DNA from: Heterostelium album PN500
Taxonomy: Eukaryota > Evosea > Eumycetozoa > Acytosteliales > Acytosteliaceae
NCBI RefSeq assembly: GCF_000004825.1
Contig: NW_008805066.1
Location: 868,001-932,000, forward strand
Length of the DNA: 64,000 nucleotides
Direction of reading: 5' to 3'
Shown here piece after piece: positions 764 through 57,867 of this stretch; the stretch's first letter is position 1; each line of letters starts with the position of its first letter. Position numbers and translations under genes: made by a program. A model generated the notes under the pieces. That model was not told where the DNA came from. It ran no database searches and saw nothing but the letters and a program-made list of their open reading frames with translations.

Positions 764-2632
764 ATGATTAAAAATATTTTATTATTTTTAATTTTTTATA
801 ATATTTATATATCGTGTAAGATTTACAAAAAAAAATTAAATAAAATAAAGTGATTAAATAATTAATAATTTAAATCTTTATTTTTTGATTTTATAGATGC
901 TGCAAATATTACAAGTATAACATTTAATGGGAATGTTACTACCATTAGTGGAATAGACATTGGTAGCACAACGAAAATAAATGTTTTAGTTAGTATCGAG
1001 GGTAGTCCTGCAACCATTCAAATCTCTGACTTCACAGCCAATGGTGGTGCATTGCAATTTACGATTCCATCTGCTGTCGGTGTAAGAGGTACCATTCAGT
1101 TGGAACCGAGTGGAGTCCAAGCCGATTGGAATCCATTGCCTGTTGTCAGCTCTGTCAGTACCGCTCCGATCTCTGGTGGTACAATCACAGTGAGTGGTAG
1201 CTATCTATCGTCTGGCAATGAAGCAGATGCAAACAAATCGACAATAACATTCCCACATGGCAAAGTAATCCAAGAGTACCAGAGTTCATCGCTTTCAAAG
1301 GTTGCCTATTTCACACTGACACCGAGTGTTGCCATTCTTTACTCTGGTGTTAATATCCCACTTACTCTGACTGTAAGAGGATTGAATCAGACCGTTTTGT
1401 TCTCCTTTGATAAACCAAACATCACCGGTGAATCATATATTAACACTGGAATAGTATTGAACGGTGTTAACTTAGGTACCAATGCTTCATTAGTTCAATT
1501 GTATACAGACCAGACAAAAATAACCATTTCTAGTATAACCAACACTGCCATAACAATTCTCTATAGTGATAATCCAATTCTTTTCTTCATCTGGAACTCG
1601 TTATCTTAATTTAACCAGTAAATGGAAATGTTATCGATAAAATCTATACTTTAACAATACGTATGTATAGTTAGTTTATATCAAATAAGTAATAGTATTT
1701 ATTAATATATTTATTTTTAAAATAGAAATACAAGTTCTAGGATATTATCAAATTCATGATAAAGGATACCTTTTAACCAATGTTCCCTTGACAAAAGCTG
1801 GAAAAGTATTGATTCAAAGCGAGGAAAGTGATTTCAATCCATATACCTCTCCATCAGAGCAGGGTGTATCTTTCTCGTTACCATGGGATGCTACTATCGG
1901 TAATACCACTATGACATTAAACATTGGTGCTGGTGCAACAATTATTCAGAACATTCCAATCTCCCATCCAACCATCTCTCGATAACATTACAAGTGGTAA
2001 TGTACCCTGTCCAGTGAGTGGATGTGATTTGGTATTCCACGGTTTCTTCCCTACAACAAAGCAAGACCAGTATTAAAAACTTGACATTCGGTGATATCCC
2101 ATGTTCGAATACCTACACACAAGGATACAACCAATTGGTTTGTACCGTTGGAAATGGAACTGGTTCCAATCTGCCAGTTCTTCTGGTCTATAATAATGGT
2201 GTGACAAATCCAGCTTCCGATAAATTGTTCTTTAGCTATCAAGCACCCACTGTCCAAGATGTTGGAATCAACGAGAACAACTTGACTATCAATGGTACCA
2301 ACTTTAACTACCCTCTTTCAGTAGTGGCAACTATCAACTCCACTATGATCACGTGTACCAATCCCTATGTAGATTCATTCTCTCAGATTTATTGTACGTT
2401 CGACAGATCGATTGGAACACCTGATAAAATTTACTTGAACATTACTGTTGGAAATCAATATATTGCTGATGATTATATTTGTAAGTATAACACTCACACT
2501 TAAATAGTAGTTTTTTCATTAACTAACTATTCTTATTGTTTTTATTTAGTGGGAGCATCATATGGTATTAAATTAAATATTAATTTCTCAATTTCTTTTG
2601 CCATTATAATAATATTACTTTCTTTTATTTAA
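764..2632 (+). pseudogene. IPT/TIG-repeat, GPI-anchored adhesion-type protein, frame-disrupted
   Basis: Exon 1 (764-815) encodes MIKNILLFLIFYNIYIS, a clear signal peptide, and splices in phase (816-896) to an exon reading YAANITSITFNGNVTTISG. The product is Thr/Ser/Asn-rich with many N-x-S/T sites and repeated IPT/TIG-like beta-sandwich sequence, as in contact-site-A and Tgr cell-adhesion proteins of dictyostelids. Further introns are likely at about 1661-1724 and 2481-2549. The last exon (2550-2632) ends in a hydrophobic tail (ISFAIIIILLSFI), which suggests a GPI-attachment signal. The length, roughly 550 residues, is close to contact site A. The frame must change at least three times (twice between about 1575 and 1620, near 1985, near 2050), so this is either a decayed gene or poor sequence. 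The family call rests on architecture, not on a close match. Confidence 0.55.
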
Positions 2633-2767: not shown

Positions 2768-4548
2768 TTAGATGGTAATTGATGTAGATGCACACCACTC
2801 TCTATTTTTTTTAATAATATCTCTAAAGAATGGTTCACATTGATTGGATTCGATTGAATATTTGAAATTACATTCATTAAATTCACCGAATGAATAGATA
2901 TAACTTGATGTTGGTGATTCTCGATGATACATCAAATTAGAAAACTGTAAATTTGTTAGAGGAATTGCATTGAGATTGATTGTTTGTTTGGTTTCAACAT
3001 TGTATTTGATGAATTGATTGTTTGTTGAATCTAATATGAAGAAATTTCCATTCTTATCATGACATGCTGACCATGGTGAAATATCAATTTGGTGATCTGT
3101 TATCGTTCTGTTTGTTAAATCGAATTGAAATAGCTTATTTTGATCGTATGATACTGAATATAATGAACCTTTGAAGATCATTGATGATACTTGCATATTA
3201 TATCCAATTTCTAATTGATAGTATGATTCAAATTTCATTGTCTTGATGTTGAATCGATCAATTCTATTCTTTATATTATAACCATTCACTAAATAGATAT
3301 GATCTTGACCATCATAACAAACTGATATATGGTAATCACCTTTTATTCCTTTGAAATCACCAATATATTCAATTGATTTCGATTTCATTGATATTATAAT
3401 CCATTTGTTTCGATTGTAATATCCACCGAATATATAGATATATTCACCAATTGAAACAATAGAGGAGTGCGTACCCCAAAACTGATAATTAAACTTTAAT
3501 TCTTCAGTTGAGTAGTTGTTTGTGTTTATAAGTGTTGCTCCATTTGATTTATGTGTCGCGAAAATATAAGATTCTTTGTTATCATTGTTGTTTTTTGTTT
3601 TTTTTATTGATTCAGTTGATTTTGATTCAATCTTCTCGTTTGATTGATTGTTCAATGATTGAATTCAATTGATTGAAATCAGGTTGTTTGATTGATAATT
3701 TATATGATGATAATGTTAAGTTATTATTGTCTGTGATTGTAGTGGATTCATTGAATTGATTGTTGTATTTATGAATGATATCTAATAATAATGATGATGA
3801 ATCTGAGGAATGTTGTTTAAGTAGTGTATCAATATCGAAATAATTATTATAATTGTGTTCATTGAATAATGTTTGATTATTATGATTGATGAATGATTGT
3901 AATGATGAACTTGTTGTTATTGATTCCATTATTGTTGTTGTTGAATATAATGTCGTTGTATCTGGAATAATCGATTGATCATCACAACTACTGTTAATAC
4001 TATCATTACTACTATTATCATTATTACGATTTAATTTATTAAATATATTGATAATATTTAATAAATATTTTAAATGATTAATATTATTATCGATTTGATT
4101 TGTGATTGTTTGTTTATCATTGATAATATCTCTTTGTAGTTTATGTTCTTCTCTGATTAGATATTGATGTAATTGTTCAAAGTATTGTTTTATTGAATAC
4201 TCTGTTGTTGATAATCTTTGATATCTGGATGTCGATGATCTTAATGATTCCCATAAAGATTTAAGTTTATTATTGATTTGTGAATTCAAATTATTACTAT
4301 TATTAGTATTACTACTATTATTACTACCACTATTATGATTATTGTTTGTTATTGTGGTGGTGTCAATAATATCATCTAATTTCAATGTACTCAATGAATG
4401 CTTGATGTCATCGATATGTTCCCATTGATCGGCATGATCAGGATGATCTTTGTTATGTGTACTGATACATTTTGAACACATCAAACTATTACATTGATAA
4501 CAAATGAATTCGTGTGATCTTTGATGATTTAAACCATTTAATTGTCAT
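2768..4548 (-). pseudogene. B-box/coiled-coil/beta-propeller protein, copy A (two frame breaks)
   Basis: This is the first copy of a TRIM-like family seen again at 8240, 11309 and 57013. From the N terminus it has a B-box zinc finger (C-x2-C then H-N-K-D-H-P-D-H), an Asn-rich linker, a coiled coil with the family pattern LHQYLIREEHKLQRDIIND, and a C-terminal repeat domain of about 280 residues with ISVCYDGQDHIYLVNG, which looks like a kelch/NHL-type beta-propeller. Compared with the intact copy at 8240-10018, one extra base lies in the first codons (AAATGG for AAATG, near 4530), and a second shift near 3640 sits where the coiled-coil half meets the propeller half; elsewhere the frame is open. 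No RING finger is present. The two breaks could be real decay or sequencing error. The function of the family is unknown to me; B-boxes usually mediate protein contacts. Confidence 0.75.
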
Positions 4549-4639
4549 TATTACTTTTAATATTTTATAAATGTTACAAAAATAAAAAAGTATTTGTGCA
4601 AAAAAAAAAAAAAAAAAATCACCATATTCCCAAAAAATG

Positions 4640-4915
4640 TAACGTTGCTTTATTAGTCGACTAATAAAAAACTAATATAATTTTGACTGTATAAAAAGTT
4701 TGGTTCACATTGATCGACTAATTAATAAAGAAATTAATAAAGTAGTGAGTTAGAAGATTTAATTGATTCGAGTCAGGATTTAAATCATGGTGTTGTGCTA
4801 TAGATTCATTCTTACCGATCACAGAAAAGAAAGAGATCGAGCGACAAGAGCTAACAATGAAAGCACACACAGAAGTAGAGACTAGAGAAGAGATACATCT
4901 ATACATAGAATAAAA
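4640..4915 (+). repeat. Relic of the leader repeat found upstream of the Uma2-like genes
   Basis: The part around 4795-4890 (containing GAAAGAGATCGAGCGACAAG) resembles 7020-7110 and 10545-10615 (GAAAGAGATCGTAACGACAAG in both, followed by similar AATGAAA and GAGATAGAGAC text). In all three places the repeat lies just upstream of, and divergent from, a B-box gene. Here the nuclease-like body that should follow is missing, so this looks like a truncated third copy of the duplicated unit. The rest of 4549-5349 is A+T-rich with no supported gene. Confidence 0.6.
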
Positions 4916-5349
4916 GGCCGAATTGATGTTGGTTGCCTAAAACAGTAGAACCACAAGATTCATTAAACAATGAAGATCAAGATAAAAGTAATGATAAAAA
5001 TATAGTAACATCAAGAAAATATAACTCTCGACACATGTTAATATTCTTTTGATGATCGAACATAAACCATTGAGTAGCTTTCTGATATAAAATTTAATAT
5101 TTTCAAACATATCATCTTTAGAAATTAAAATATCAATTGAAATTTCAGTGTTGTATATTGATCTTTTATTTTACAGATATTGTTGTTAAAGAATAGATGA
5201 AAAAAAGATATTTTTCTTAAATATCGTTATGAATAATAAATACAGTTTTTTTTCAAAATTATTTATTAATTTATTAAGTAAGTATATTTAGTTTTTTTTA
5301 ATTGCAATAAACATTAATGTTTTTGAAAAGAGTTTGAGGGAAATCTCCA

Positions 5350-6006
5350 TTATTGCGAGAACAATGAAGATAAAATAGATTCCTCTATCTTTTGAAAAGG
5401 ATTGAGTCTCATGTGATGGTGGTTTGCACCGGCTGATTCATTTCTTAAGTATAGATCTACTCCATAGAATAGATTGTGTGACTTGCATAGATAGTTCTTG
5501 AAGGAGTGAAGTTTTTGATTATATTTACCAAACACTTCTTTAATCACTCCTCCATTCAAGGAATAATACTTGGTAGATAGAAGTTGACCATTATTTACTT
5601 GTTTCTTTACTTCAAATATATAATTTGGATAGGCTCCTAAAGATTTTAGAAAATCTGAAAATGCTATATCCTTTTCTGTACGAATTGGTTTGTATGGAAT
5701 TAGTTTATCAGGACAACAAAAAGGAAGGTTTTCTGGAGTGGAAACTACTGGAGTATCTGAATATACTGGTCTTGGTAGATCGGATTTATAACAAATTAAA
5801 AGATCTCCTAACCTTTTTTCATTGTAATTTGTTAATAATTCCGCTGGATAATTTGGAAGCAATTCGTTGGAATTGAAATCTACAATTAATGAACTAAATG
5901 ATGTAGTCCAGTTATTTTGTATTGTTATAACAAGTACTCCATTTGTAGAAATTCCTTTGGAGGAACAGAAATTTCTTAGGTTTTTAATGATTTCCGAGTT
6001 ATCCAT
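5350..6006 (-). CDS. Orphan 218-residue hypothetical protein
   Basis: This is an uninterrupted single-exon frame. The first Met of the longest frame is at 6069, but Met at 6006 (MDNSEIIKNLRNFCSS) is preferred because the 21 residues before it are Lys/Ile-rich, as translated A+T-rich leader would be. There is no signal peptide, membrane segment or low-complexity tract. Visible features are a mixed alpha/beta composition, a Pro-rich middle (VVSTPENLPFCCPDKL) and a His cluster near the C terminus (GANHHHMRLNPF). I do not recognise the family. It lies inside the B-box/Uma2-like array where the body of a nuclease-like gene would be expected, so it may have been brought in by rearrangement. A function cannot be given. 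Confidence 0.6.
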   Translation of the reverse strand: MDNSEIIKNLRNFCSSKGISTNGVLVITIQNNWTTSFSSLIVDFNSNELLPNYPAELLTNYNEKRLGDLLICYKSDLPRPVYSDTPVVSTPENLPFCCPDKLIPYKPIRTEKDIAFSDFLKSLGAYPNYIFEVKKQVNNGQLLSTKYYSLNGGVIKEVFGKYNQKLHSFKNYLCKSHNLFYGVDLYLRNESAGANHHHMRLNPFQKIEESILSSLFSQ

Positions 6007-6738
6007 TATTCTTATTTTCTTTTTTGTTAATTTTTTTAAATTAATATTTAAAGTTAGTATTGTGCACAATAAAATAAAAGAATTTAAGGATTTAATTTGA
6101 AAAGATAATATCGCAATATATATACTTTTTAAACTTTAATATTTAAGTTTAAACATATATATATATGAATTAACACTTATTAAATATAACCACTTTTTAT
6201 ATTGTTTGTAAAATTAACACTTTTTTTTGCCTGTATTTGATGATTTTATTTATATATTATTATGATAACAATCTGATATTGGTAGGAGATCTAATTTAGA
6301 TCCAAATTTCATTTAAAAAATAACAGCTTATTGATTATCCAATCCTGTTAATAACAATATTTTTATTTTAAGTGAAACGTATGCACTCTTGAAACAACAA
6401 ATTCTTACCAGCTATATCTTACCATCTAAAAAAATTTCTGAGTGCTAAGAGTGTGATTGATAAAATAAAGAATAACATAAACAATTCTCATTACATTCAT
6501 TAATAAGAATAAATTAACTTCACACAAAATGAAATTGGGGCACTTTCTTGTATCTGCTATGATATTTACATAAAATAATAAGTAACATTAATGTTTGAAC
6601 TTAATTATGCTTATTTTATTGAAAACATACATGTCCATCTATAGGTGAATATTCTCATTATCTATACCTTAATTAACTTTTCTTCAAATTCTTTCACCTT
6701 TATATAATCTTTGTAATAATCATTTATAATAATTCTCT
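6007..6738. other. A+T-rich spacer within the array
   Basis: I see no gene here. The sequence is A+T-rich, with no frame showing coding composition on either strand. It separates the orphan ORF from a propeller-gene fragment. Confidence 0.5.
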
Positions 6739-6850
6739 CAATTTGATGATCCTTTATTGTTCTATTTTTTCAATTGAAATATCTTATTTTGATTGTAAGA
6801 CATTGAATAAATTGATCCTTTGAAGATCTTTGACAACTCGCTACCACTAA
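6739..6850 (-). pseudogene. Internal fragment of a B-box/propeller gene
   Basis: About 110 bases (TTGATGATCC then TTATTTTGATTGTAAGACATTGAATAAATTGATCCTTTGAAGATC) match the part of the propeller region at 8566-8660 of copy B that encodes the FDLTNRTITDHQ and SSMIFKGSLYS segments, with several differences. It sits next to the leader repeat, just as complete B-box genes do, so it looks like what remains of a copy after an internal deletion. Confidence 0.65.
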
Positions 6851-6879
6851 AGATAATCTATCCTATTTAGAGTATACAA

Positions 6880-8070
6880 TACATAATCAAGAGTTATAGC
6901 AACATACAAGAAAAGAGATTTTTAGTTGAAAGAAAATTGAAAGAACTATGTAGATGAACCACTTCCACCAATAGCCCCCTACATCAAAGTTATTTGATCG
7001 ATCATTAAGATTCCTTCATTTATCAATTGAAAGATAAAGAGATCGTAACGACAAGGATGTCAATGAAAGAAGCTAAACAAAAGTAATAATGAGATAGAGA
7101 CAACAGAAGTGATGAGTAAGATAATAATTTATATAATGTTAATCAATACAATCAGTTGTTTATTAATCATTTTTATTGATTAAATGCATCTAATATTAAC
7201 AATAATAGTAATAAAATTAATAACAGACAGTAACAACATCAACCAATACCTTCTTCGATACCTCTTCTGATTCAATGATAATGCAACTGTTTATCTCACA
7301 GCTTTATCCATCTATGGTTCAAGGAGAGATTTCTTCTTTTGTCTGTTGTGATACCATTGAGAATCGTAGGTTACACTAAATCAGTCAACAAGGAAGAATG
7401 ATCGATGATGTACCCAAAATTCGATAGACCTGACAATAGTGTAATTCCAAGAGGTAAATGAAACAAGCAAACATCCAGCTATTACCATCCAATCCAGTGA
7501 ACGATCCATTTCCAACCGTTATCATAGAGTTTGGTGTTCACTTCTCCGACTCAATCGACGAGCTGCCAAATATCTTGGAGAGACCACTGATATCCAATAT
7601 ATGATATGTTGAATCTGTTTCTTCGCTATCCAAATCAGAACTTTGAAGGTGGACCTCCAAGTACAACAACATTTTGTGCATTAGCTCTTTTAAAGCAGAG
7701 ATGGACCACCTGGACATAATCCGACCATTCCAACACAAGTTGTTTCGTTTGATACGAGACCTTCGACATTGGTCAAACAATGGAACAGATTCTTCAACTA
7801 GGTGTGAGTCAAGCATCAATACTTGGCAATAAACAACCGATTACAATCAATCCGTATGTACTCGCAGTTATTCCCTCCGGTTTTCAATATATACTCAAAC
7901 TACATAGTGCGAATGTATTTAATAGAGTTCCTCCTCCTCCTGTCGTTCCTCATGGTTTTCCTCCCTCTATAGATTTGATAACAATCAGAAATTTGATAGA
8001 GGAAACACAGAAAATAGACAAGTTCTTATTAAAATTCATTCAACCAAAATCGTCTCATTTGTTATATTAA
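6880..8070 (+). pseudogene. Uma2-type PD-(D/E)XK nuclease-like gene, copy 1, degraded
   Basis: The 5' part (6880-7165) is the leader repeat. From about 7285 the DNA parallels 10900-11170 (GAGAATCGTAGGTTACACT, AGTCAACAAGGAAGAATGATCGATG, ATCCAGTGAACGATCCATTTCCAACCGTTATC). The decoded segment DPFPTVIIEFGVHFSDSIDEL, with the following AAKYLGETTDIQ in another frame, fits the end of an Uma2 (PF05685-like) fold, where the Val-Glu-Val strand carries an active-site acid. The last 97 codons (7780-8070) are open and Pro-rich. Coding frames change several times, so the gene is broken. It converges on B-box copy B, 170 bases away. The Uma2 assignment is inference from motif order and needs a profile search. 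Confidence 0.5.
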
Positions 8071-8239
8071 AACAAAATAAAGAGAAATAAAGATAATTTG
8101 TAATTTATATGGATTTGAATTTTGATTATTTTTTATAAAAATGTTTTGGTAGTGTCATTAAATGCTAAGTTTATCAAATATTATTATAAATTTATAATGT
8201 AATTGATGTAGATGCACCACGTCTAATGTGATCTCTTTA

Positions 8240-10018
8240 TTAAAAAATAATTGATGTAGATGCACACAACCCTCTTTGGTGATTATTAATATCTCTAAAG
8301 AATGGTTCACATTGATTGGATTCAATTGAATATTTGAAATTACAATCATTAGTGGTACCAAATGAATAGATATAACTTGATGTTGGTGATTCTCTATGAA
8401 ATATCACAAATGGAAACTGTCCATTTTTGAGAGGAATAGAATTGAGATTGTTTGTTTGTTTGGTTTCAACATTGTATTTGATGAATCGTTTGCTTGCCAT
8501 ATCAAATATGAAGAAATTTCCATTGTTATCATGACATGCTGATGATGGTTTAATGTCAATTTGATGATCTGTTATCGTTCTGTTTGTTAAATCGAATTGA
8601 AACATCTTATTTTGATTGTGCGATACTGAATATAATGAACCTTTGAAGATCATTGATGATACTTGCATACCATATCCAACAGGTAATTGATGATATGATT
8701 CAAATTTCATTGTTTTGATGTTGAATCGATCAATCCTATTCTTAATATGATAACCATTCACTAAATAGATATGATCTTGACCATCATAACAAACTGATAT
8801 CAAATAATCACCTTTGATTCCTTCGATATCACCAATATGTTCAATTGATTTCGATCGAATTGAAAATTTAATCCATTTCCATTCATTTTCTATTCCACCG
8901 AATACATAGATATATTCACCAATTGAAATAATAGAGGAGGTGGTATAAGTAAATTGATAATCAAACTCCAATTCTTCAATTGAATAGTTGTTTGATGTGT
9001 TGATCAGTGTTGCTCCTCTTGATTGGTGTGTTGTGAAAATATAAGATTGTTTATTATCATTGTTGTTTTTTGTTGTTGTATTTATTGATTCAGTTGATTC
9101 TATCCTATCAAGTTTGATTGATTGTTCAATGATTGAATCCAATTGGTTGAAATCAGGCTGTTTGATTGATAATTTATATGATGATAATGTTAAGTTATTA
9201 TTGTCTGTGTTTGTTGTTGATTCATTGAATTGATTGTTGTATTTATGAATGATATCTAATAATAATGATGTCAAATCATTATCGTGTTGTTTGAGAAGCT
9301 CATCTATATTGAAATAATTATTATATTTAAAATTATGTTCATTGAATAATGTTTGATTATTATGATTGATGAATGATTGTAATGATGAACTTGTTGTTAT
9401 TGATTCCATTATTGTTGTTGAATATAATGTTGTTGTATCTTCAATTACTGACGTATCTTCATTACTATTATTATTGTTATTATTATTATTTAATTTATTA
9501 AATAACATTATTATATTTAATAAATATTTCAAATTTATGATATTATTATCGATTTGATTTGTGATTGTTTGTTTATCATTGATAATATCTCTTTGTAGTT
9601 TATGTTCTTCTCTGATTAGATATTGATGTAATTGTTCAAAGTGTTGTTTGATATCATTCTCTGTTGTTGATAATGATTGATATCTTGTTGTCGATGATCT
9701 TAATGATTCCCATAGAGATTTAAGTTTATTATTGATATATGAATGAGAATTATTATTATTATTACTATTTTTAACACTGTCATTATTAGTACTATCATTA
9801 TTAATATGATTATTGATTGTTGTTGTGTTGCTGTAAATAATATCATCTAATTTCAATGTACTCAATGAATCCTTGATGTCATCGATATGTTCACATTGAT
9901 TGGCATGATCAGGATGATCTTTATTATGACCGGTGATACACCTTGAACACATCAAACTATTACATTGATAACAAATGAATTCGAGTGATCTTTGATGATT
10001 CAAACATTTAACTGTCAT
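8240..10018 (-). CDS. B-box/coiled-coil/beta-propeller protein, copy B (intact)
   Basis: This is the intact reference copy, 592 residues in one exon. Residues about 4-45 form a B-box zinc finger (CLNHQRSLEFICYQCNSL, then CSRC and HNKDHPDHANQCEH). An Asn/Ser-rich linker follows, then a coiled coil at about 95-175 with LREEH-like heptads and a second helical part ending near residue 300. The C-terminal 280 residues are a repeat domain with GEYIYVFGG, CYDGQDHIYLVNG and SSMIFKGSLYS, typical of propeller blades. The layout is that of TRIM/NHL proteins without the RING finger, so ubiquitin-ligase activity cannot be assumed. The gene converges on Uma2-like copy 1 and diverges from the leader of Uma2-like copy 2 about 320 bases away, which suggests a shared upstream region. 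Cytosolic location is inferred from the lack of a signal peptide. Confidence 0.85.
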   Translation of the reverse strand: MTVKCLNHQRSLEFICYQCNSLMCSRCITGHNKDHPDHANQCEHIDDIKDSLSTLKLDDIIYSNTTTINNHINNDSTNNDSVKNSNNNNNSHSYINNKLKSLWESLRSSTTRYQSLSTTENDIKQHFEQLHQYLIREEHKLQRDIINDKQTITNQIDNNIINLKYLLNIIMLFNKLNNNNNNNNSNEDTSVIEDTTTLYSTTIMESITTSSSLQSFINHNNQTLFNEHNFKYNNYFNIDELLKQHDNDLTSLLLDIIHKYNNQFNESTTNTDNNNLTLSSYKLSIKQPDFNQLDSIIEQSIKLDRIESTESINTTTKNNNDNKQSYIFTTHQSRGATLINTSNNYSIEELEFDYQFTYTTSSIISIGEYIYVFGGIENEWKWIKFSIRSKSIEHIGDIEGIKGDYLISVCYDGQDHIYLVNGYHIKNRIDRFNIKTMKFESYHQLPVGYGMQVSSMIFKGSLYSVSHNQNKMFQFDLTNRTITDHQIDIKPSSACHDNNGNFFIFDMASKRFIKYNVETKQTNNLNSIPLKNGQFPFVIFHRESPTSSYIYSFGTTNDCNFKYSIESNQCEPFFRDINNHQRGLCASTSIIF

Positions 10019-10339
10019 TATTAACTTTTAATATCCTATTAATGTTGGTAAATAGAAAAGGATGCAAACCAAAAAGAAACTAACTCACAACCCTTCCGGA
10101 CCTCTGCGCATTTATTTTAATAAAAAAAGTAAAATTAGAGGTGAAAATGATTCAATTATGCAGGTCAAAAAAAAACAATCAGATTTTTATTGTAATGACT
10201 AGTCGATAAAAAAATGTGTAACGTTTCTAATTAATTAAGAATATTAAATAAAGTAATGAATTTGAATATTTAATTAATTCAATTAGATAGTTTTATTATT
10301 TTGCGCGACTGACACACTAAGTTTGCAAGAATATCATTA

Positions 10340-11185
10340 TAATTATTTATAGTTGTTTGCTCATAGCAATCGATTAGGAAATAGACATTCAATCAGAAGT
10401 ATCAGCAACAATAACCAACATACAACAAAAGTCATTTTTAGTGGAAGTAGTAAAGAGAAAGAACGATGTATATCAACCACTACCAACACCAAAAGTCCCT
10501 ACATCAAAGGCATTTGTCGATCATTAAGAATCATTCATAGATCAACGGAAAGAGAAAGAGATCGTAACGACAAGGATAAAAATGAAACAAAATTAATAAT
10601 GAGATAGAGACAGCAGAAGTTATGAGTATGTTAATAATTTATATAATGTTAATACAATACAATCAGTTGTTTATTATTTATTAGTTATTACAATAAACAC
10701 AAACTGTTCTCATATGAGTTTATGAAATAATATTCTAATTCTTGTTTTTTTCAAACTCTAGTATTACCTTCCAATTGTAAACAACCTTAGAAGAAGATTT
10801 ATCTAGTCTACCCTATCGATTTGTCCTCGAGGAGAATGTACAATTGAAAAAATATATAAACTATCGGAAGGTAGAGATCCAAAGGTCAGACTCCAATACG
10901 ATAATGGTAGAGTTTATATCACACAGCTTTATCCATCTGCAGTTCATGGAGATTTCTTCTTGGGTCAGTAGTGATATCACTGAGAATCGTAGGTTACACT
11001 TACTCAGTCAACAAGGAAGAATGATCGATGTTGCACCCAACATTCGATACCTACCAGACGATTGCGTTATTCCAATAGGTAGAGGTGGACAATCTATCAT
11101 CCCGCTCTTACCATCCAATCCAGTGAACGATCCATTTCCAACCGTTATCGTTGAGGTTGGTGTTCACTTCTCATCACTTCTCTGA
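10340..11185 (+). pseudogene. Uma2-type PD-(D/E)XK nuclease-like gene, copy 2, degraded
   Basis: The leader repeat (10340-10690) has a coding look in one frame (STERERDRNDKDKNET). Beyond a likely intron, 10800-10960 reads RVYITQLYPSAVHGDFF and a neighbouring frame reads QGRMIDVAPNIRYLPDDCVI, then DPFPTVIVEVGVHFS. That order (an acidic/aromatic strand, an LYPSxxHGD turn, a P-D-D segment and a V-E-V strand) is that of the Uma2 restriction-endonuclease-like family (PD-(D/E)XK superfamily), known mainly from bacteria and also expanded in some fungi. The gene stops soon after the V-E-V strand and shows several frame breaks. It lies between B-box copies B and C and ends 124 bases from the 3' end of copy C. 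Family assignment is inference. Confidence 0.5.
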
Positions 11186-11308
11186 CTTCACCAATAAACT
11201 AATTAAAAGAAATATTGTAATGTAATGTAATATTAACAACCATTTTATAGTAAAATGGTATTTATTAACTTTTAAGTTGTTAATTGAAATGGTTTAAAAA
11301 CAAATTTA

Positions 11309-13073
11309 TTAAAACGTATTTGATGTAGATGCACACTCTGCTCTTTTGTGATTGGAAATATTTCTAAAAGTTGCTTCACATTGATTGGTTTCAATTGAAT
11401 ATTTGAAATTACAATCATTATAATTACCAAATGAATAGATATAACTTGATGTTGATGATTCTCGATGATACATTAAAGATGTAAAATGTGCATTCGCGAG
11501 ATGACCTGCATTGAGATTGGTTGTTTGTTTGGTTTCAACATTGTATTTGATGAATCGTTTGCTTAATATATTAAATATGAATTGACTGTTTCTCTTATCT
11601 AATATGAAGAAATTTCCATTGTTATCATGACATGCTGACCATGGTATAATGTCAATTTGATGTTCTGTTATCGTTCTGTTTGTTAAATCGAATTGAAATA
11701 GCTTATTTTTATTGTATGATATTGAATATAATGAACCTTTGAAGATCATTGATGATGCTTGACGATCATATCGATCAGGTAATTGATGATATCGATCAAA
11801 TTTCATTGTCTTGATGTTGAATCGATCAATTCTATTATTTATTTTCCAACCATTCACTAAATAGATATGATCTTGACCATCATAACAAACTGATATTAAT
11901 TGATCACCTTTGATTCCTTCGATATCACCAATATGTTCAATTGACTTCGATTTCATTGATATTTTAATCCATTTGTTTTCATTGGTATATCCACCGAATA
12001 TATAGATATATTCACCAATTGAAACAATAGAGGAGTGCGTACCATCAAATTGATAATCAAACTTTAATTCTTCAATTGAATTGTTGTTTGATGTGTTGAT
12101 CAGTGTTGCTCCTTTTGATTGGTTTGTTGTGAATATATATGAGTGTTTATTATCAAGTTTGATTGATTGTTCAATGATTGAATTCAATTGATTGAAATCA
12201 GGTTGTTTGATTGATAATTTATATGATGATAATCTTAAGTTATTATTGTCTGTTTTTGTTGTTGATTCATTGAAATTGATTGTTGTATTTATGAATGATA
12301 TCTAATAATAATGATGTCGAATCTGAGGAATTTTGTTTGAGAAGTTCATCAATATTGAAATAATTATTATATTTAAAATTATGTTCATTGAATAATGTTT
12401 GATTATTATGATTGATGAATGATTGTAATGATGAACTTGTTGTTATTGATTCCATTATTGTTGTTGTTGAATATAATGATGTTGCATCTTCAATATCTGA
12501 TTGATCATCACAACTACTATTATCATTATTATTACTGTTATTACTATTTAATTTATTAAATACATTAATTATATTTAATAAATATTTTAAATGATTTATA
12601 TTATTATCGATTTGATTTGTGATTGTATGTTTATCATTGATAATATCTCTTTGTAGTTTATGTTCTTCAATGATTAGATATTGATGTAATTGTTCAAAGT
12701 GTTGTTTGATATCATTCTCTGTTGTTGATAATCTTTGATATCTGGATGTCGATGATCTTAATGATCCCCACAGAGATTTAAGTTTATTATTGATTTGTGA
12801 ATGAAAATTAATACTATTATAAAGATTATTATTATTATTATCAGTTCTGTCATTATTAATATGATTATTGGTTGTTGTTATGGTGATGTCAGTAATATCA
12901 TCTAACTTTAATGTAATCAATGAATGTTTGATGTCATCGATATGTTCACATTGATCGGAATGATCAGGATGATCTTTATTATGACCGGTGATACACCTTG
13001 AACATATCAAACTATTACATTGATAACAAATGAATTCGTGTGATCTTTGATGAACTAAACATTTATTGGTCAT
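11309..13073 (-). CDS. B-box/coiled-coil/beta-propeller protein, copy C (one frame break)
   Basis: This is the third tandem copy, with the same order as copy B: B-box (CLVHQRSHEFICYQCNSLIC, then CSRCITGHNKDHPDH), Asn-rich linker, coiled coil and propeller (GEYIYIFGGYTNENKWIKIS, CYDGQDHIYLVNG). At about 12272 it has one extra T against copy B (CAATTTCAATGAATC for CAATTCAATGAATC), which closes the first frame after 268 codons; the second frame then runs to 12187 and on to the stop at 11309. A single homopolymer change may well be a sequencing error, so I list it as a gene. Inside the propeller it carries a short duplication-like insertion (FILDKRNSQFIFNILSKRF) against the other copies. Confidence 0.75.
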
Positions 13074-13460
13074 TATTAATTACTTTCAATTTATTTACTT
13101 ATTATTACACAAATATTGTGAGAATATCGAAAAAAATTAAAATTTTAATTAAAATAGTGATCAAAAAACAACAAAAAAAAAAAAACAATGCTTTTAATTA
13201 AATTTTTAAGTTTCTATTAACAGATAGCAACAATCATCTGTAAATCATTCATTATTTATTTTGAAAAAGTCTAAATTAAGAATATTATGAATGATTGTTT
13301 ATAGTTTTTTTATTGTATTATTTTTTTTTTAAAAAAATGATAAATGTAATAGTATTATTATTTGTGAGCTTTTTGGGTGCGATGTGATGATGGTAATTAT
13401 TATTATTTATAATATATATAAAAGTTGATCTTTTTTTATGGTTCTTTAGATTTAATTAAA
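13074..13460. other. Spacer between the B-box array and hook
   Basis: This is A/T-homopolymer-rich DNA holding the promoter side of B-box copy C and the 3' flank of the hook gene. I see no gene or RNA in it. It marks the boundary between the accessory array and the core block. Confidence 0.6.
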
Positions 13461-50543: not shown

Positions 50544-51845
50544 ATGTCTGGCAATGAAGCATCTTCCTCTACCACTACTTCAACCAATGATTCAAAGCCT
50601 TTTGACCAAGTTAATGGTAATATCAGCATGAACATCATTATAATGCATTTGCATACAATGACTAACCTATTATTTACTTTCTTCTCCCTCTCCTTGTTCA
50701 CAACTCTCACACCGCTCATTACTCTACCAATCATATGACTTCAATCGTTTCCTACAACCTATTCATATACACTCACTCTTCTTCTCATCATACTTCATAC
50801 ACAACAGCTCCTCAAACATCAACACCAGAAGGTATGTACATCTACACAAACCAACAACCTTAATGATACTGACAAACTTATTCCACTTCTTAATTGTCAA
50901 TACAGTTGCTTCAGAGCTCGAGTTTTGGAGGACGTTGCACAGTGCCTCGATTGATCCCGCAGTCAATATCCTTTCCCTCCCAGTGGGCGTGTACTTCATG
51001 GGGAATAGTGTCAAGAGATCATCAATCTACGTGAGAGATTGCTATGTTGAGCTGAAAGATCAAATCTATGCAGAATTTGATCAATATGAAGTTAATTCAA
51101 CTTCAACCCCAACCACAGACTCTATGAATGGATTCGTTATCACTGGCAATCCAGGAACTGGTAAGTCCTGTTTCCTCTTCTACATTATGTATCTCATCGC
51201 ACGGGTCAAGGGAACTATGGTTGTTCACTCGATTCACGCCAAGAATGCCGATTCATACTATCTCTACACTTACGTTGGTGGCATTCCAGTTGTCAGACGT
51301 GGACCCAAGAGTGATTTTATCACTCTCCTTAGTCTCAGATCAACTTTCTTTTTGGTAGACAGCAAAGAGGAGACAAATGTCGCAGCTAAAACGATCATTG
51401 TTTCATCGCCTGATCCGAGGATCAACAAACATTTTCTGAATAACGTTGGCACGACCCGCTGGTATATGCCACCTTGGTGCAAATCCGAACTTGATCACGT
51501 AAGACCAATTTTATACCCAAATGTCACACAGGTAAGTATCTACTCCCTAACTTTGACAACTTTCCTGCGATCGATAGTTTGATCAAACCCAACCAGCTGT
51601 TTCAGGTCACCACCTCGAATGAGCATCCACCAGTGATGAACAAACTGTCCGATATCATCGATCAACTCGGAACGGGAGTGGCACAAGTAGACTTGTATTT
51701 CGTCCTTCCTAAAGATCGGTACGACACATTCAGAGAACAGAATTATCTCACCGAGAAGATGAAGAAAGCTTCCAAGATATCCAAGCAAGTGAAGAAAGTC
51801 ACCCAGTATGCATTGTTGATTGAGTTGCCAGCACCATTGCCCTAG
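50544..51845 (+). CDS. Crinkler/RHS-type P-loop NTPase
   Basis: Four exons (50544-50616, 50808-50831, 50906-51531, 51606-51845) join in phase to 320 residues; exon 2 is only 24 bases. After a Ser/Thr-rich start, about residue 33 begins ELEFWRTLHSASIDPAVNIL, then the Walker A loop FVITGNPGTGKSCFLFYIMY and a strand ending LRSTFFLVDS in the Walker B position. KTIIVSSPDPRINKHF with RWYMPPWCKSELDHVRPILY follows. The SSP element followed by Y-M-P-x-W-x-x-x-E-L is the hallmark of the CRN/RHS NTPase group seen in oomycetes, chytrids, trypanosomes and some amoebae, often N-terminal to a nuclease. No nuclease domain is visible here. The gene looks whole and sits amid repeats. Assignment is from motif order. 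Confidence 0.7.
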
Positions 51846-54076: not shown

Positions 54077-55910
54077 TTATTGAGAATTTATTTCGAAAAT
54101 AGCACCACTCATCCTACAATAATCATCGTTTGTAAAAATGATCTCCCATTGATCATTCTCGATTGAATATCTTTGATTTTCTTTGTTATATTGATTTCCA
54201 CGAAGAACATAAATATATGATTGTTCATCTGAAAACTTGTGATACAACAAAGAATTAGGAAATTGATGATTAGATTTCAGATCGACCATTTTCAAGGTGT
54301 CGACATTGAAACGATGAAAAGTTTTGTTATTTGTGTAGAAATAGACATTTCCATTGCCATCGGTGCATGCACAATAATATTCCATCTCACTAGGCATATC
54401 GATGTCTTCTATCTCGTCTTTGGTTGGATCATAAATTGACATATAGTTATCTGATTCCGAAAAAGTATAGAGTTTACTTTTGTACCAGAATGAGAGGATG
54501 GATGGGATAAAAACACCTTCATCATAATCTTCCCAATGAAGATTGTTTGTTAAATAACCAATGAAGAAATTTTGGAACATGAGAGTATGAATGTTGAATC
54601 CAATAATATATTTGTTGACACACATTAAATAGATATGATCTTTACCATCATAGGATAGAGTGATATTCGAAATATCATGATCGTAATCCATTTCACTGAT
54701 TTTCATTTGTTTTGTGGTAATCGAGTATGTGAAATATATTCTCTTCTCGATATTGAATGAATAGATGGTATCGCCAACTTGAATAACTGGTGAATCTTGA
54801 AAATCGAAATGAGAGTGTTTAATTTTATGGATTACACTTGGTTCTGTTGAGTTGTTGGTGATGTCAAACAGTGTTGCTCCATTATCAGAATGTGTTGAAA
54901 AGATATAGGTGTGTTTGGTGTTGTTTATTTTGTTATTAAAAATGAGTTGTGGTTGTTCAAATGGTAAAGTGTGAAGATCTATTGAAGATTTAAAGAATTT
55001 ATATAAATCATTTTCTAATTTATCTTTTGAAAGTGATTTAAAATAATAATCACTGATTGATTGTTGTTTGAAATTGATTATTGATTTCGTTGAGTTGTTA
55101 ATGTTGTTATTTATCTTATAAATTGAATCTAATAACATTGAATCTGTATCATTATTATATTGTTGTGAGAGAATATCTTTGAGATCGTAATGATTATCAT
55201 GATTGATATCTAAAGTGTATTGATTGAATATTGTGTCTGAATTCGATTGAATGAATGATATTAATGTTGAACATTGATTGATTGATTCAATGATTGATCT
55301 TGTTGAATATCTTGTTGTTGTATCTTCTTGATTACTTGGTGGATCTGTACTTTTAATATGATTATTATTAATATTCTGTATTCTATTATTTATTTTGAAG
55401 ATATTTGATATTTGTTTCAATTCATTGATATTTGATTCGATTTGATTGATAATTATTTGTTTATCATTGATTATCTCTTTTGTTAATGATCTTTCTTTTT
55501 CAATGAGGTAGTCATGCAACTCTTTAAAGAATCGTGAAATATCATTCTCTGTTTTTGATAATTTCTGATAGTGTGTTGATGATGATTTGATTGTTGTCCA
55601 TATATCTTTGATTCTATTGTTAATGAAACTATTATTATTATCTATTTTTTGTTTTTTTAAAAAGAGTTTGTTGTTGATAGTTATTATTATTATTATTATC
55701 GAATCCTAAATTAGTACTATATGATAAATATTCAGATATTATATGATTGTTTATGGTTGTTTTGATATCATCGATATGTTCACAACAATTATAATGATCA
55801 TTAGTTTTATTATGAATCGATATACATCTTGAACATAACAACAGATTACATTTAAAACATATATTCTCGAATGATCTTTGATGTTCTGAACATTTAAAAT
55901 CTAAATTCAT
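54077..55910 (-). CDS. B-box/coiled-coil/propeller protein, copy F (second subfamily, one frame break)
   Basis: The N-terminal B-box is CSEHQRSFENICFKCNLLLC with CSRC and HNKTNDHYNCCEH. After a short Asn/Gln-rich linker the frame shifts within a poly-A tract near 55655 and resumes as FINNRIKDIWTTIKS, running into the coiled coil (YLIEKERSLTKEIIND) and a C-terminal propeller of about 290 residues (VGDTIYSFNIEKRIYFTYS, LSYDGKDHIYLMCVNKYII, CACTDGNGNVYFYTNN). A change within a homopolymer may well be a sequencing error, so the gene is listed as coding. It is the full-length relative of truncated copy D. Total length would be about 600 residues, as for the first subfamily, but the two subfamilies share little sequence outside the B-box and blade motifs. 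Confidence 0.77.
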
Positions 55911-57012: not shown

Positions 57013-57867
57013 TCAACTGAATCAATAAATACAACAACAACAACAAACAACAATGATAATAAACAATCTTATATTTTCGCAACACACAATCTAAATGGAG
57101 CAACACTGATCAACACATCAAACAACAATTCAATTGAAGAATTACAGTTTGATTATCAATTTTATGGTACGCACTCCTCGATTTTTTCAATTGATGAATA
57201 TATCTATATATTCGGTGGATATCAAAATCCAAACAAATGGATTAAAATATCAATTCGATCGAAATCAATTGAACATATTGGTGACATCGAAGGAATCAAA
57301 GGTGATAATTATATATCAGTTTGTTATGATGGTCAAGATCATATCTATTTAGTGAATGGTCAAATAAATAATAGAATTGATCGATTCAACATCAAGACAA
57401 CGAAATTTGAATCATATCATCAAATACCTGTTGGATATGGACATCAAGCATCATCAATGATCTTCAAAGGTTCATTATATGCATTATCCCAAAATAGAAA
57501 AAAGTTATTTCAATTCGATTTAACAAATAGAACGATAACAGATCATCAAATTGATTTTAAACCTTATTCTGCTTGCCATGACAACAATGGAAATTTCTTC
57601 ATTTTAGATACAAACAAACGATTAATCAATTATAATGTTGAAACCAAACAAACAATCATTCTAAAAATATTTCCTATCATTAACAAAGCTCAACCATTTG
57701 TTATGTATCATCAAGAATCACCAACATCAAGTTATATCTATTCGTTTGGTAATTCACTTGACTGTAATTTCAAATATTCAATTGAATCCAATCAATGTGA
57801 ACCATTCGAAAGATATACTATGAATTATAATAGAGAGTTGTGTGCATCTACTTCAATTACATTATAG
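57013..57867 (+). CDS. B-box/propeller protein, copy G, C-terminal part (5' end in gap)
   Basis: An uninterrupted frame runs from the gap to TAG at 57865-57867, 284 codons. It begins with STESINTTTTNNNDNKQSYI, corresponding to the linker before the propeller in copy B, and covers the whole propeller (DEYIYIFGGYQNPNKWIKIS, CYDGQDHIYLVNG, SSMIFKGSLYALS, FKYSIESNQCEPF, CASTSI). It belongs to the first subfamily although it lies next to second-subfamily genes, and it is the only copy on the plus strand. The B-box and coiled coil presumably lie in the gap. The frame is clean, so the gene may be functional. Confidence 0.8.
   Translation, partial: STESINTTTTTNNNDNKQSYIFATHNLNGATLINTSNNNSIEELQFDYQFYGTHSSIFSIDEYIYIFGGYQNPNKWIKISIRSKSIEHIGDIEGIKGDNYISVCYDGQDHIYLVNGQINNRIDRFNIKTTKFESYHQIPVGYGHQASSMIFKGSLYALSQNRKKLFQFDLTNRTITDHQIDFKPYSACHDNNGNFFILDTNKRLINYNVETKQTIILKIFPIINKAQPFVMYHQESPTSSYIYSFGNSLDCNFKYSIESNQCEPFERYTMNYNRELCASTSITL

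What the first reader, a model, noticed from the sequence alone, without database searches (positions are those of the whole stretch)
2768..13073. Tandem array alternating TRIM-like B-box/propeller genes with Uma2-like nuclease genes
Seen: minus-strand B-box/propeller genes at 2.8, 8.2 and 11.3 kb, with plus-strand leader repeats and nuclease-like relics between them, so the repeating unit is (B-box gene, minus)-(shared upstream)-(leader plus nuclease-like gene, plus). Counting the truncated copies there are at least three units. Inference: the two gene types were duplicated together, shared an upstream region and may once have worked as a pair; the nuclease partner has decayed while the B-box partner is kept. 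A receptor-like propeller beside a nuclease would fit a defence or recognition system.
Basis: partly seen in the sequence, partly recalled or inferred. Interest (0 to 1): 0.72.

Follow-up and report, generated by a model that had tools for sequence, protein, structure and literature searches.

The report
TRIM-like kelch family with variable pocket
The tandem genes belong to a family of about 70 similar genes in this amoeba genome whose proteins share one barrel-shaped scaffold but differ most at spots predicted to form its binding pocket, as a set of recognition proteins would; the supposed nuclease partner beside them is a decayed hitchhiker of unproven identity.

Summary
The tandem array is real but differs from the description. 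Three B-box/kelch genes (83-85% identical DNA) are present; only the middle one (8240-10018, 592 aa) is open, the other two are frame-broken. A leader and a decayed plus-strand gene were duplicated with two of them; a third leader-relic copy lies 200 kb away without a full B-box gene. No test run here identifies the relic as Uma2-like. True Uma2 genes exist elsewhere: 4 of 10 loci lie within 10 kb of the B-box family, but FNIP genes are also enriched there.

The unexpected result is the B-box partner. The genome holds about 70 loci of this family (49 long open frames): B-box, predicted long helix, six-bladed kelch propeller, no RING in members scanned. In 15 paralogs, variation in the propeller peaks at 18 sites. 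On a predicted structure 17 of 18 lie in DA and BC loops, the pocket loops of Keap1 and KLHL20, and none in the opposite loops. Omega at these sites is about 2.5, also in eight paralogs not used to pick them, though not in an older set (1.08). This resembles HET-D/HET-E non-self receptors. Reading: a diversified repertoire of recognition adaptors; ligand and function are inferred. The receptor-nuclease pair is not supported.

The parts
2768..4544 (-). B-box/coiled-coil/kelch gene, copy 1, broken by two frame-shifting indels
   Evidence: ORFs 2768-3664 and 3627-4544; indels; 83-85% identity to the other copies
8240..10018 (-). B-box/coiled-coil/kelch gene, copy 2, open, 592 aa (reference protein; residue 1 is at 10018)
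   Evidence: ORF; Kelch_6 E 2.6e-17, B-box E 1.9e-4 (21.9 bits, cut-off 24.1); L006
8243..9070 (-). Propeller of copy 2 (residues 317-592): six-bladed kelch; 18 hypervariable sites (residues 332, 357, 358, 376, 377, 405, 406, 423, 424, 467, 492, 507, 527, 533, 535, 536, 555, 583)
9482..9766 (-). Predicted long helix (residues 85-179), coiled-coil-like; low confidence
   Evidence: DSSP H85-179, block pLDDT 38-64; TRIM25 match E 0.015 over residues 4-153
11309..13073 (-). B-box/coiled-coil/kelch gene, copy 3, broken by one frame-shifting indel
   Evidence: ORFs 11309-12301 and 12267-13079
6738..6833 (-). Fragment of a kelch-coding part of a further B-box copy
   Evidence: 79-80% to the three copies
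6900..7171 (+). Leader, unit 2
   Evidence: 82% to 10416-10682
7277..8070 (+). Decayed plus-strand gene (relic), unit 2; not identified
   Evidence: no Pfam match
10416..10682 (+). Leader, unit 3
10781..11185 (+). Decayed plus-strand gene (relic), unit 3, truncated
4718..4769 (+). Remnant of the region upstream of the leader, unit 1
   Evidence: 85% over 54 columns to 10227-10280
5333..8258 (.). Block also present at C5:670.9-673.9 kb (MDN gene, kelch fragment, leader, relic)
   Evidence:-91% in the two main pieces
5350..6006 (-). 218-codon open frame beginning MDNSEII, no Pfam family; travels with the block
54077..55705 (-). More distant member of the same architecture (542 aa frame)
   Evidence: (67-71% DNA to N-terminal parts), TRIM_CC E 0.035
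57019..57864 (+). Propeller part of another close family member
   Evidence: 77% protein identity
46984..48993 (-). Distant B-box gene (669 aa) whose C-terminal part was aligned to the propeller (24% identity)
   Evidence: B-box E 0.048

Best explanation
The array is a small, partly decayed outpost of a genome-wide family (about 70 loci) of TRIM-like proteins without a RING: an N-terminal B-box, a long helix (probably a dimerising coiled coil), a flexible linker and a six-bladed kelch propeller. Each copy keeps the same scaffold but has its own residues in the DA and BC loops that form the ligand pocket on one face of a kelch propeller (10 of the 12 such loops hold a hypervariable site; one more site lies at the strand edge of an eleventh). 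Most likely the propeller binds a target that varies or evolves fast (a foreign or non-self protein, or a degron-like peptide), and the B-box and helix bring bound targets into an oligomer or to a partner enzyme. The repertoire renews itself by local duplication, decay and gene conversion, while selection diversifies the pocket. The leader and relic were copied along with two of the genes as hitchhikers. Shown: family size, predicted fold, location of the variable sites, omega above 1 at those sites in the C5-type and related copies, local homogenisation. Inferred: that the pocket binds a ligand, what the ligand is, and oligomerisation.
For: Family: 88 HSPs = 69 merged loci (one holds two genes, so 70), 31 on C5 at 737-1141 kb; 49 genes with one open frame of at least 550 aa. 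Fold: AlphaFold2 propeller pLDDT 81.6, pTM 0.84, six blades; best PDB matches are designed and Keap1/KLHL kelch domains, TM (by query) 0.72-0.79 in the 50 rows listed. Hypervariability: of 273 sites, 18 reach 2 bits of entropy in 15 copies, 33 more reach 1.2 bits and 135 are invariant. 17 of 18 lie in DA/BC loops, 0 in AB/CD loops, 1 in the second residue of a strand: P 1.8e-8; with loops widened by 1 or 2 residues 17 or 18 of 18, P 1.5e-6 and 2.2e-6. Ten of the 12 DA/BC loops have one length in all 15 copies. Selection: pN/pS 1.63 at the sites in the same set, 1.42 in 10 other paralogs (rest of propeller 0.56 there), 1.41 (1.15-2.02) in cross-validation, against 0.83-0.85 for the rest of the propeller in the 15. 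ML omega at the sites 2.47 (core 15, 2dlnL 12.4) and 2.68 (other 8, 2dlnL 8.7); opposite-face loops 0.30-0.37. Replicate: 7 C9 copies are also more variable in DA/BC loops (mean entropy 1.47 against 0.90, P 5e-5). The sites are aromatic-rich (F/W/Y/H 32% against 11% in the rest of those loops; strands 26%). DA and BC loops are the pocket of Keap1 and KLHL20 (passages of PMC4668279, PMC6720452). HET-D/HET-E show positive selection in the same two loops (PMC1805685 passages).
Against: In the C9/C12/C24 set (9 copies) omega at the same sites is 1.08 and over all DA/BC loops 0.61, so positive selection is not shown there. Over all DA/BC loops omega is only 1.05 (core 15, 2dlnL 0.14) and 0.92 (other 8); by counting 1.23 (bootstrap 1.00-1.55) in the core and 0.98 in 10 others. 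The sites were picked by amino-acid entropy, which biases the same-set test. Gene conversion among copies and non-independence of paralogs weaken the P values. B-box scores of the window copies scanned are below the Pfam cut-off, and no RING was found. The full-length model is poor in helix and linker (mean pLDDT 60.3, pTM 0.46). No expression, ligand or localisation data. A periodicity test of the sites along the sequence was not significant (P 0.06).
Confidence: 0.6

Rival explanations
1. Substrate-adaptor repertoire for endogenous targets: the proteins are ubiquitin-system or autophagy adaptors whose pockets diverged to bind different self proteins (subfunctionalisation after duplication), with no immune or non-self role.
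For: The kelch pocket of Keap1/KLHL proteins binds degron peptides; B-box and helix are TRIM-like; omega of about 2.5 can also follow from functional divergence of duplicates.
Against: About 70 copies, the same loop positions varied again in a second clade, many decayed copies and local gene conversion look more like an arms-race repertoire than stable subfunctions; no BTB, F-box or RING domain found in members scanned.
Confidence: 0.25
2. Relaxed constraint: the loops tolerate change in a redundant, decaying family, and hypervariability is neutral drift.
For: 21 of 69 merged loci fail the open-frame criteria; omega over whole DA/BC loops is about 1 in the core and 0.61 in the C9/C12/C24 set, where the sites themselves give 1.08.
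Against: Omega above 1 at the sites in paralogs not used to choose them (2.68); 10 of 12 loops keep one length in all 15 copies and the other two in 14 of 15; aromatic residues are enriched at the sites; the opposite loops are conserved.
Confidence: 0.11
3. Defence module: B-box propeller receptor plus divergently transcribed Uma2-type nuclease, duplicated as a pair.
For: Leader and relic were co-duplicated; 4 of 10 Uma2 loci lie within 10 kb of the family against 0 of 55 TIG groups (Fisher P 3e-4), one in a divergent arrangement about 1.2 kb apart.
Against: Relic not recognisable as Uma2; only 3 relic copies found for 70 B-box loci; FNIP genes are also enriched near the family (5 of 38 groups); six of 10 Uma2 loci are not within 20 kb of it.
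Confidence: 0.04

Closest known systems
HET-D/HET-E/HNWD NACHT-WD40 non-self recognition genes of Podospora anserina (PMC1805685)
   Same: Propeller scaffold homogenised between paralogs while positions in the DA and BC loops on one face are under positive selection; family with pseudogenes (passages read).
   Different: There: WD40 repeats, nearly identical repeat units exchanged between and within genes, NACHT domain, allorecognition shown. Here: six unlike kelch blades, no NACHT found, B-box and helix instead; allelic variation not examined.
Keap1 / KLHL20 (BTB-kelch E3 adaptors)
   Same: Six-bladed kelch fold; pocket built from DA and BC loops, where the variable sites lie.
   Different: No BTB or BACK domain found; N-terminus is a B-box; 9-14% sequence identity in the listed structure matches.
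TRIM (RBCC) family, TRIM-NHL type
   Same: B-box, predicted long helix, C-terminal propeller; weak sequence matches to TRIM25, TRIM2, PML and TRIM_CC in a relative.
   Different: No RING found; propeller is kelch rather than NHL by best Pfam score. One TRIM (TRIM37-like) is reported for D. discoideum (PMC5758549, PMC3503706 passages).
Dictyostelid 'zinc finger, B-box domain and FNIP repeat-containing' family OG5_126643 (206 genes in P. pallidum; PMC4334915 Table 2)
   Same: Large lineage-dependent dictyostelid expansion of B-box proteins.
   Different: The reference protein shows no FNIP repeat but a kelch propeller; whether these genes were counted in that group could not be checked.
Tachylectin-2 of corals (PMC2880987)
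   Same: Reported under positive selection (title and start of abstract only); that it is a propeller is recalled.
   Different: Lectin without a B-box (recalled).

Membership tests
TRIM / RBCC | RING finger before the B-box | tested here: not met
   Searches (reference protein, E up to 10; 5 members, E up to 1): no RING family; the protein starts directly with the B-box
TRIM / RBCC | B-box zinc finger | tested here: met
   zf-B_box E 1.9e-4 but 21.9 bits, below the 24.1 cut-off; 5 of 5 members match at E up to 1; C5, H8, C16, C19, C24, C27, H31, H35, H38 invariant in 5 aligned members; TRIM25, TRIM2 and PML matches E 0.015-0.085
TRIM / RBCC | Coiled coil after the B-box | tested here: inconclusive
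   single helix 85-179 at low pLDDT; TRIM25 residues 156-300 aligned, E 0.015
Kelch propeller | Six four-stranded blades closed by a C-terminal strand | tested here: met
   predicted model (24 strands, pTM 0.84), TM 0.72-0.79 to designed and Keap1/KLHL propellers, Kelch_6 E 2.6e-17
BTB-kelch E3 adaptor | BTB/BACK domain | tested here: not met
   no BTB or BACK match
HET-D/E type NLR | NACHT domain plus WD40 repeats | tested here: not met
   neither found
HET-D/E type NLR | Positive selection concentrated in DA and BC loops of a propeller (works-like feature) | tested here: met
   in C5-type and related copies, at chosen sites rather than whole loops; not shown in the C9/C12/C24 set
Uma2 nuclease (PF05685), for the relic | Profile match to PF05685 or to this genome's Uma2 genes | tested here: not met
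   the likeness in single motifs is by eye and recall
Uma2 nuclease (PF05685), for the separate genes at C5:979, C35:109, C16:177, C10:2213, C13:263 | Profile match to PF05685 | tested here: met
   5 of 5 members of A3 (exon translations joined by eye) match, best 1.6e-13; by exon, 3 of 5 over the cut-off
Dictyostelid B-box/FNIP family | FNIP repeats | tested here: not met
   no PF05725 match in the members scanned

The most novel reading that the evidence does not exclude
Social amoebae carry a germline repertoire of intracellular recognition receptors built on a kelch propeller with a TRIM-like front end: one fixed scaffold, up to twelve diversified pocket loops, tens of genes. It arose independently of, but by the same design as, the WD40 non-self receptors of fungi.
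Probability: 0.35. Interest if true: 0.86.

Novelty: new variant of a known kind. Interest (0 to 1): 0.65.

Why it matters
What amoebae use to recognise pathogens inside the cell, or foreign cell material, is to my knowledge largely open; the review seen in passages lists one TRIM homologue in D. discoideum (PMC5758549). A family of tens of paralogs whose differences concentrate in the predicted ligand pocket is a direct, testable candidate. It would extend the design principle 'fixed propeller, diversified DA and BC loops' from fungal WD40 receptors to a kelch fold with a B-box. Large B-box expansions in dictyostelids are already in print (PMC4334915), so the new part is the kelch architecture and the pocket diversification.

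Tried and rejected
Nuclease identity of the relic: five calls against Pfam, PDB, plasmids and this genome's own Uma2 profile gave nothing convincing. By eye and recall the relic shows Uma2-like motifs; this stays a lead. The relic was also searched in the whole genome with two of its open frames and by DNA; only its own copies came back.

Uma2/B-box proximity as evidence for a pair: 4 of 10 loci within 10 kb (P 1.9e-4), 2 of 10 within 5 kb (P 0.016), 4 of 10 within 20 kb (P 1.2e-3). Controls: TIG 0 of 55 gene groups, FNIP 5 of 38 (coordinates typed from the listed rows, which are capped lists, meant as at least one row per gene, not every row). Fisher P 0.075 against FNIP and 3e-4 against TIG. 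I did not keep it as evidence for a pair.

Periodicity of variable sites along the sequence: P 0.06; not used. Relatives in viral and prokaryote contigs: none confirmed. The leader was considered as a coding exon: no consistent frame seen by eye. The relics behind leader fragments at C24 and C5:986/991 kb have no Pfam match in the three frames tried. A profile of the propeller against PDB sequences gave CD44 at E 0.002, which I take as spurious.

Rows dropped: of 30 loci fetched for the family, L029, L031 and L032 were left out before (stops), and L024 and L025 before (truncated). The 15 'core' copies are the best-scoring L006-L020; the other 10 are L021-L023, L026-L028, L030 and L033-L035; L022 and L028 were left out of the ML test (truncated C-terminus), leaving 8. 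Of the 39 or so merged loci not fetched, nine more genes were fetched. Some members (L007, L009, L011, L057, L058) lack the usual start codon and were trimmed to a later methionine.

Full report
What is there. The window is G000:C5:868001-932000 of a 32.9 Mb genome in 39 contigs. Its gene content and low GC (30.8%) are those of a dictyostelid; I recall Polysphondylium/Heterostelium pallidum as a fit by size, but no call names it. Self-alignment confirms three minus-strand B-box/kelch genes at 2768-4544, 8240-10018 and 11309-13073 (83-85% DNA identity), a leader (6900-7171 = 10416-10682, 82%) and part of a plus-strand relic (7277-7546 = 10900-11172, 83%). So two units of leader, relic and convergent B-box gene were duplicated in tandem. 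A first unit is only a remnant: 54 columns upstream of copy 1 match by BLAST. Only the middle B-box gene is open; copies 1 and 3 carry two and one frame-breaking indels.

The block is not confined to the array. A 3 kb block (5333-8258: an MDN... gene, a kelch fragment, the leader and the relic) recurs at C5:670.9-673.9 kb, 89-91% identical in its two main pieces, without a B-box gene nearby. Pieces of the leader (40-66 bases) also occur at C24:1278.0, C5:987.1 and C5:992.4 kb, near B-box genes but followed by a different relic. The leader therefore looks like part of the unstable intergenic DNA of this family rather than of one gene pair.

The nuclease. The relic has no Pfam match and no credible match in PDB sequences or plasmids. 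It does not match a profile of this genome's real Uma2 genes (probability 0.2%). Real Uma2 genes exist: 10 loci after merging 13 matches; five members tried all match PF05685. Four of the 10 lie within 10 kb of a B-box/kelch locus (binomial P 1.9e-4), one of them divergent about 1.2 kb from a broken B-box gene on C35. TIG genes are not near the family (0 of 55 groups), but FNIP genes are (5 of 38, P 0.007). I read this as shared unstable regions, not as a receptor-nuclease module.

The B-box family. A search of the genome with the 592 aa protein gave 88 HSPs, which merge to 69 loci (one holds two genes), 31 of them between 737 and 1141 kb on C5 and 16 on C9. Forty-eight merged loci (49 genes) have an open frame of at least 550 aa covering at least 480 query residues without a stop; 21 do not. 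These are lower bounds and open frames, not proven genes. Architecture: B-box (zinc ligands invariant in 5 aligned members), a predicted helix of residues 85-179 (low confidence), and a six-bladed kelch propeller. No RING, BTB, NACHT or FNIP was found in the reference protein or in 5 members scanned.

The main result. Pooled dN/dS over 15 full-length copies is 0.58 for the B-box, 0.69 for the linker and helix, and 0.99 for the propeller. Inside the propeller the variation is concentrated: of 273 sites, 18 reach 2 bits of entropy, 33 more reach 1.2 bits and 135 are invariant. The AlphaFold2 model of the propeller (pLDDT 81.6, pTM 0.84), made only from window sequences, has six blades of strands A-D closed by the C-terminal A strand. 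Of the 18 sites, 17 lie in loops joining D to A or B to C, none in loops joining A to B or C to D, and one in the second residue of a strand (hypergeometric P 1.8e-8; 1.5e-6 and 2.2e-6 with loops widened by one or two residues). Ten of the 12 DA/BC loops hold at least one such site, and 10 of 12 have the same length in all 15 copies. In Keap1 and KLHL20 the DA and BC loops form the substrate pocket (passages of PMC4668279 and PMC6720452).

Selection. At the 18 sites pN/pS is 1.63 in the set used to choose them, 1.42 in 10 other paralogs, and 1.41 (5-95% range 1.15-2.02) when sites are chosen on one half and tested on the other; the rest of the propeller gives 0.83, 0.56 and 0.85. ML codon fits give omega 2.47 (core, 2dlnL 12.4 against omega 1) and 2.68 (8 other paralogs, 2dlnL 8.7), against 0.30-0.37 for the opposite-face loops. 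Results against: for the whole set of DA/BC loops omega is only 1.05 (core) and 0.92 (other 8), or 1.23 (1.00-1.55) and 0.98 by counting. In the C9/C12/C24 set it is 0.61 overall and 1.08 at the sites, so positive selection is not shown in that older set. The location of variability does replicate there: 7 C9 copies have mean entropy 1.47 in DA/BC loops against 0.90 in the opposite loops (P 5e-5), 12 of their 18 most variable sites are in DA/BC loops and one on the other side, and the C5-defined sites exceed other DA/BC positions (1.85 against 1.38, P 0.02). Aromatic residues (F, W, Y, H) make up 32% at the sites against 11% in the rest of the same loops and 26% in strands; I take this as a sign of a binding surface.

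Homogenisation. Codons 251-300 have synonymous divergence 0.02 among the 15 copies but 0.40 to the C11 and 0.47 to the C9 members. The low value is therefore more likely local gene conversion or recent spread than codon constraint. Nucleotide distances in the N-terminal, middle and propeller parts are poorly correlated (N-propeller 0.45, N-middle 0.12, middle-propeller -0.04), as expected if parts have been exchanged.

How it most likely works. Shown: conserved scaffold, diversified pocket face on a predicted fold, many copies, decay and homogenisation. Inferred: each copy binds a different ligand in the pocket, and the B-box and helix oligomerise the bound complex or pass it to a partner, as TRIM proteins do. 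The closest functional analogue is HET-D/HET-E of Podospora, where four codons per WD40 repeat, two in the DA loop and two in the BC turn, are under positive selection and the repeats undergo concerted evolution (PMC1805685 passages). The present family is not a member of that family (no NACHT, kelch instead of WD40) and fails the RING criterion of TRIMs.

What is in print. D. discoideum is reported to have a single TRIM (TRIM37-like; PMC5758549, PMC3503706 passages). A large dictyostelid family 'zinc finger, B-box domain and FNIP repeat-containing' is tabulated with 206 members in P. pallidum (PMC4334915 section 7 read); these genes may be counted there. The main text of a survey of dictyostelid lineage-specific expansions mentions no B-box or kelch (PMC8535579, term search; supplements not seen). 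In the rows listed by searches (several capped far below the number of papers found) I saw no paper describing a B-box/kelch family or propeller diversification in dictyostelids; most subscription papers are not in that library.

Noticed in passing
window 872-2500: Plus-strand TIG/IPT-domain gene in pieces (TIG E 1e-8 and 2e-5), related to the Tgr-type cell-surface proteins; separate frames, possibly introns or decay.
   Followed up: partly
window 50662-51582; L004 5410-8463: P-loop NTPase-like frames (weak AAA/STAND hits for the window one) that look, by recall, like Crinkler/RHS-type proteins of eukaryotes; short pieces shared between L004 and the window around 49.4, 50.7 and 52.0 kb.
   Followed up: partly
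L053 5249-6319 (C5:988.2-989.3 kb): By eye, the C-terminal part of a retrotransposon-like frame inserted in a B-box/kelch gene between its N-terminal part and the rest.
   Followed up: no
L052 2450-3650; L053 2950-4180 and 8090-9450: A different decayed gene follows the leader fragment beside other B-box genes (three copies); no Pfam match in three frames tried.
   Followed up: partly
L037 and L038 (C16:177 kb, C10:2213 kb): Two very similar Uma2 genes next to similar leucine-rich-repeat-like genes (by eye): a separate segmental duplication.
   Followed up: no
codons 196-225 and 251-325 of the B-box family (window 9344-9433 and 9044-9268 in copy 2): Very little synonymous change among 15 paralogs while neighbouring codons vary; probably gene conversion.
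   Followed up: yes
C9:1624-1687 kb and C24:649-657 kb: B-box/kelch, FNIP and (on C9) Uma2 genes intermixed, as if these families share unstable regions.
   Followed up: partly
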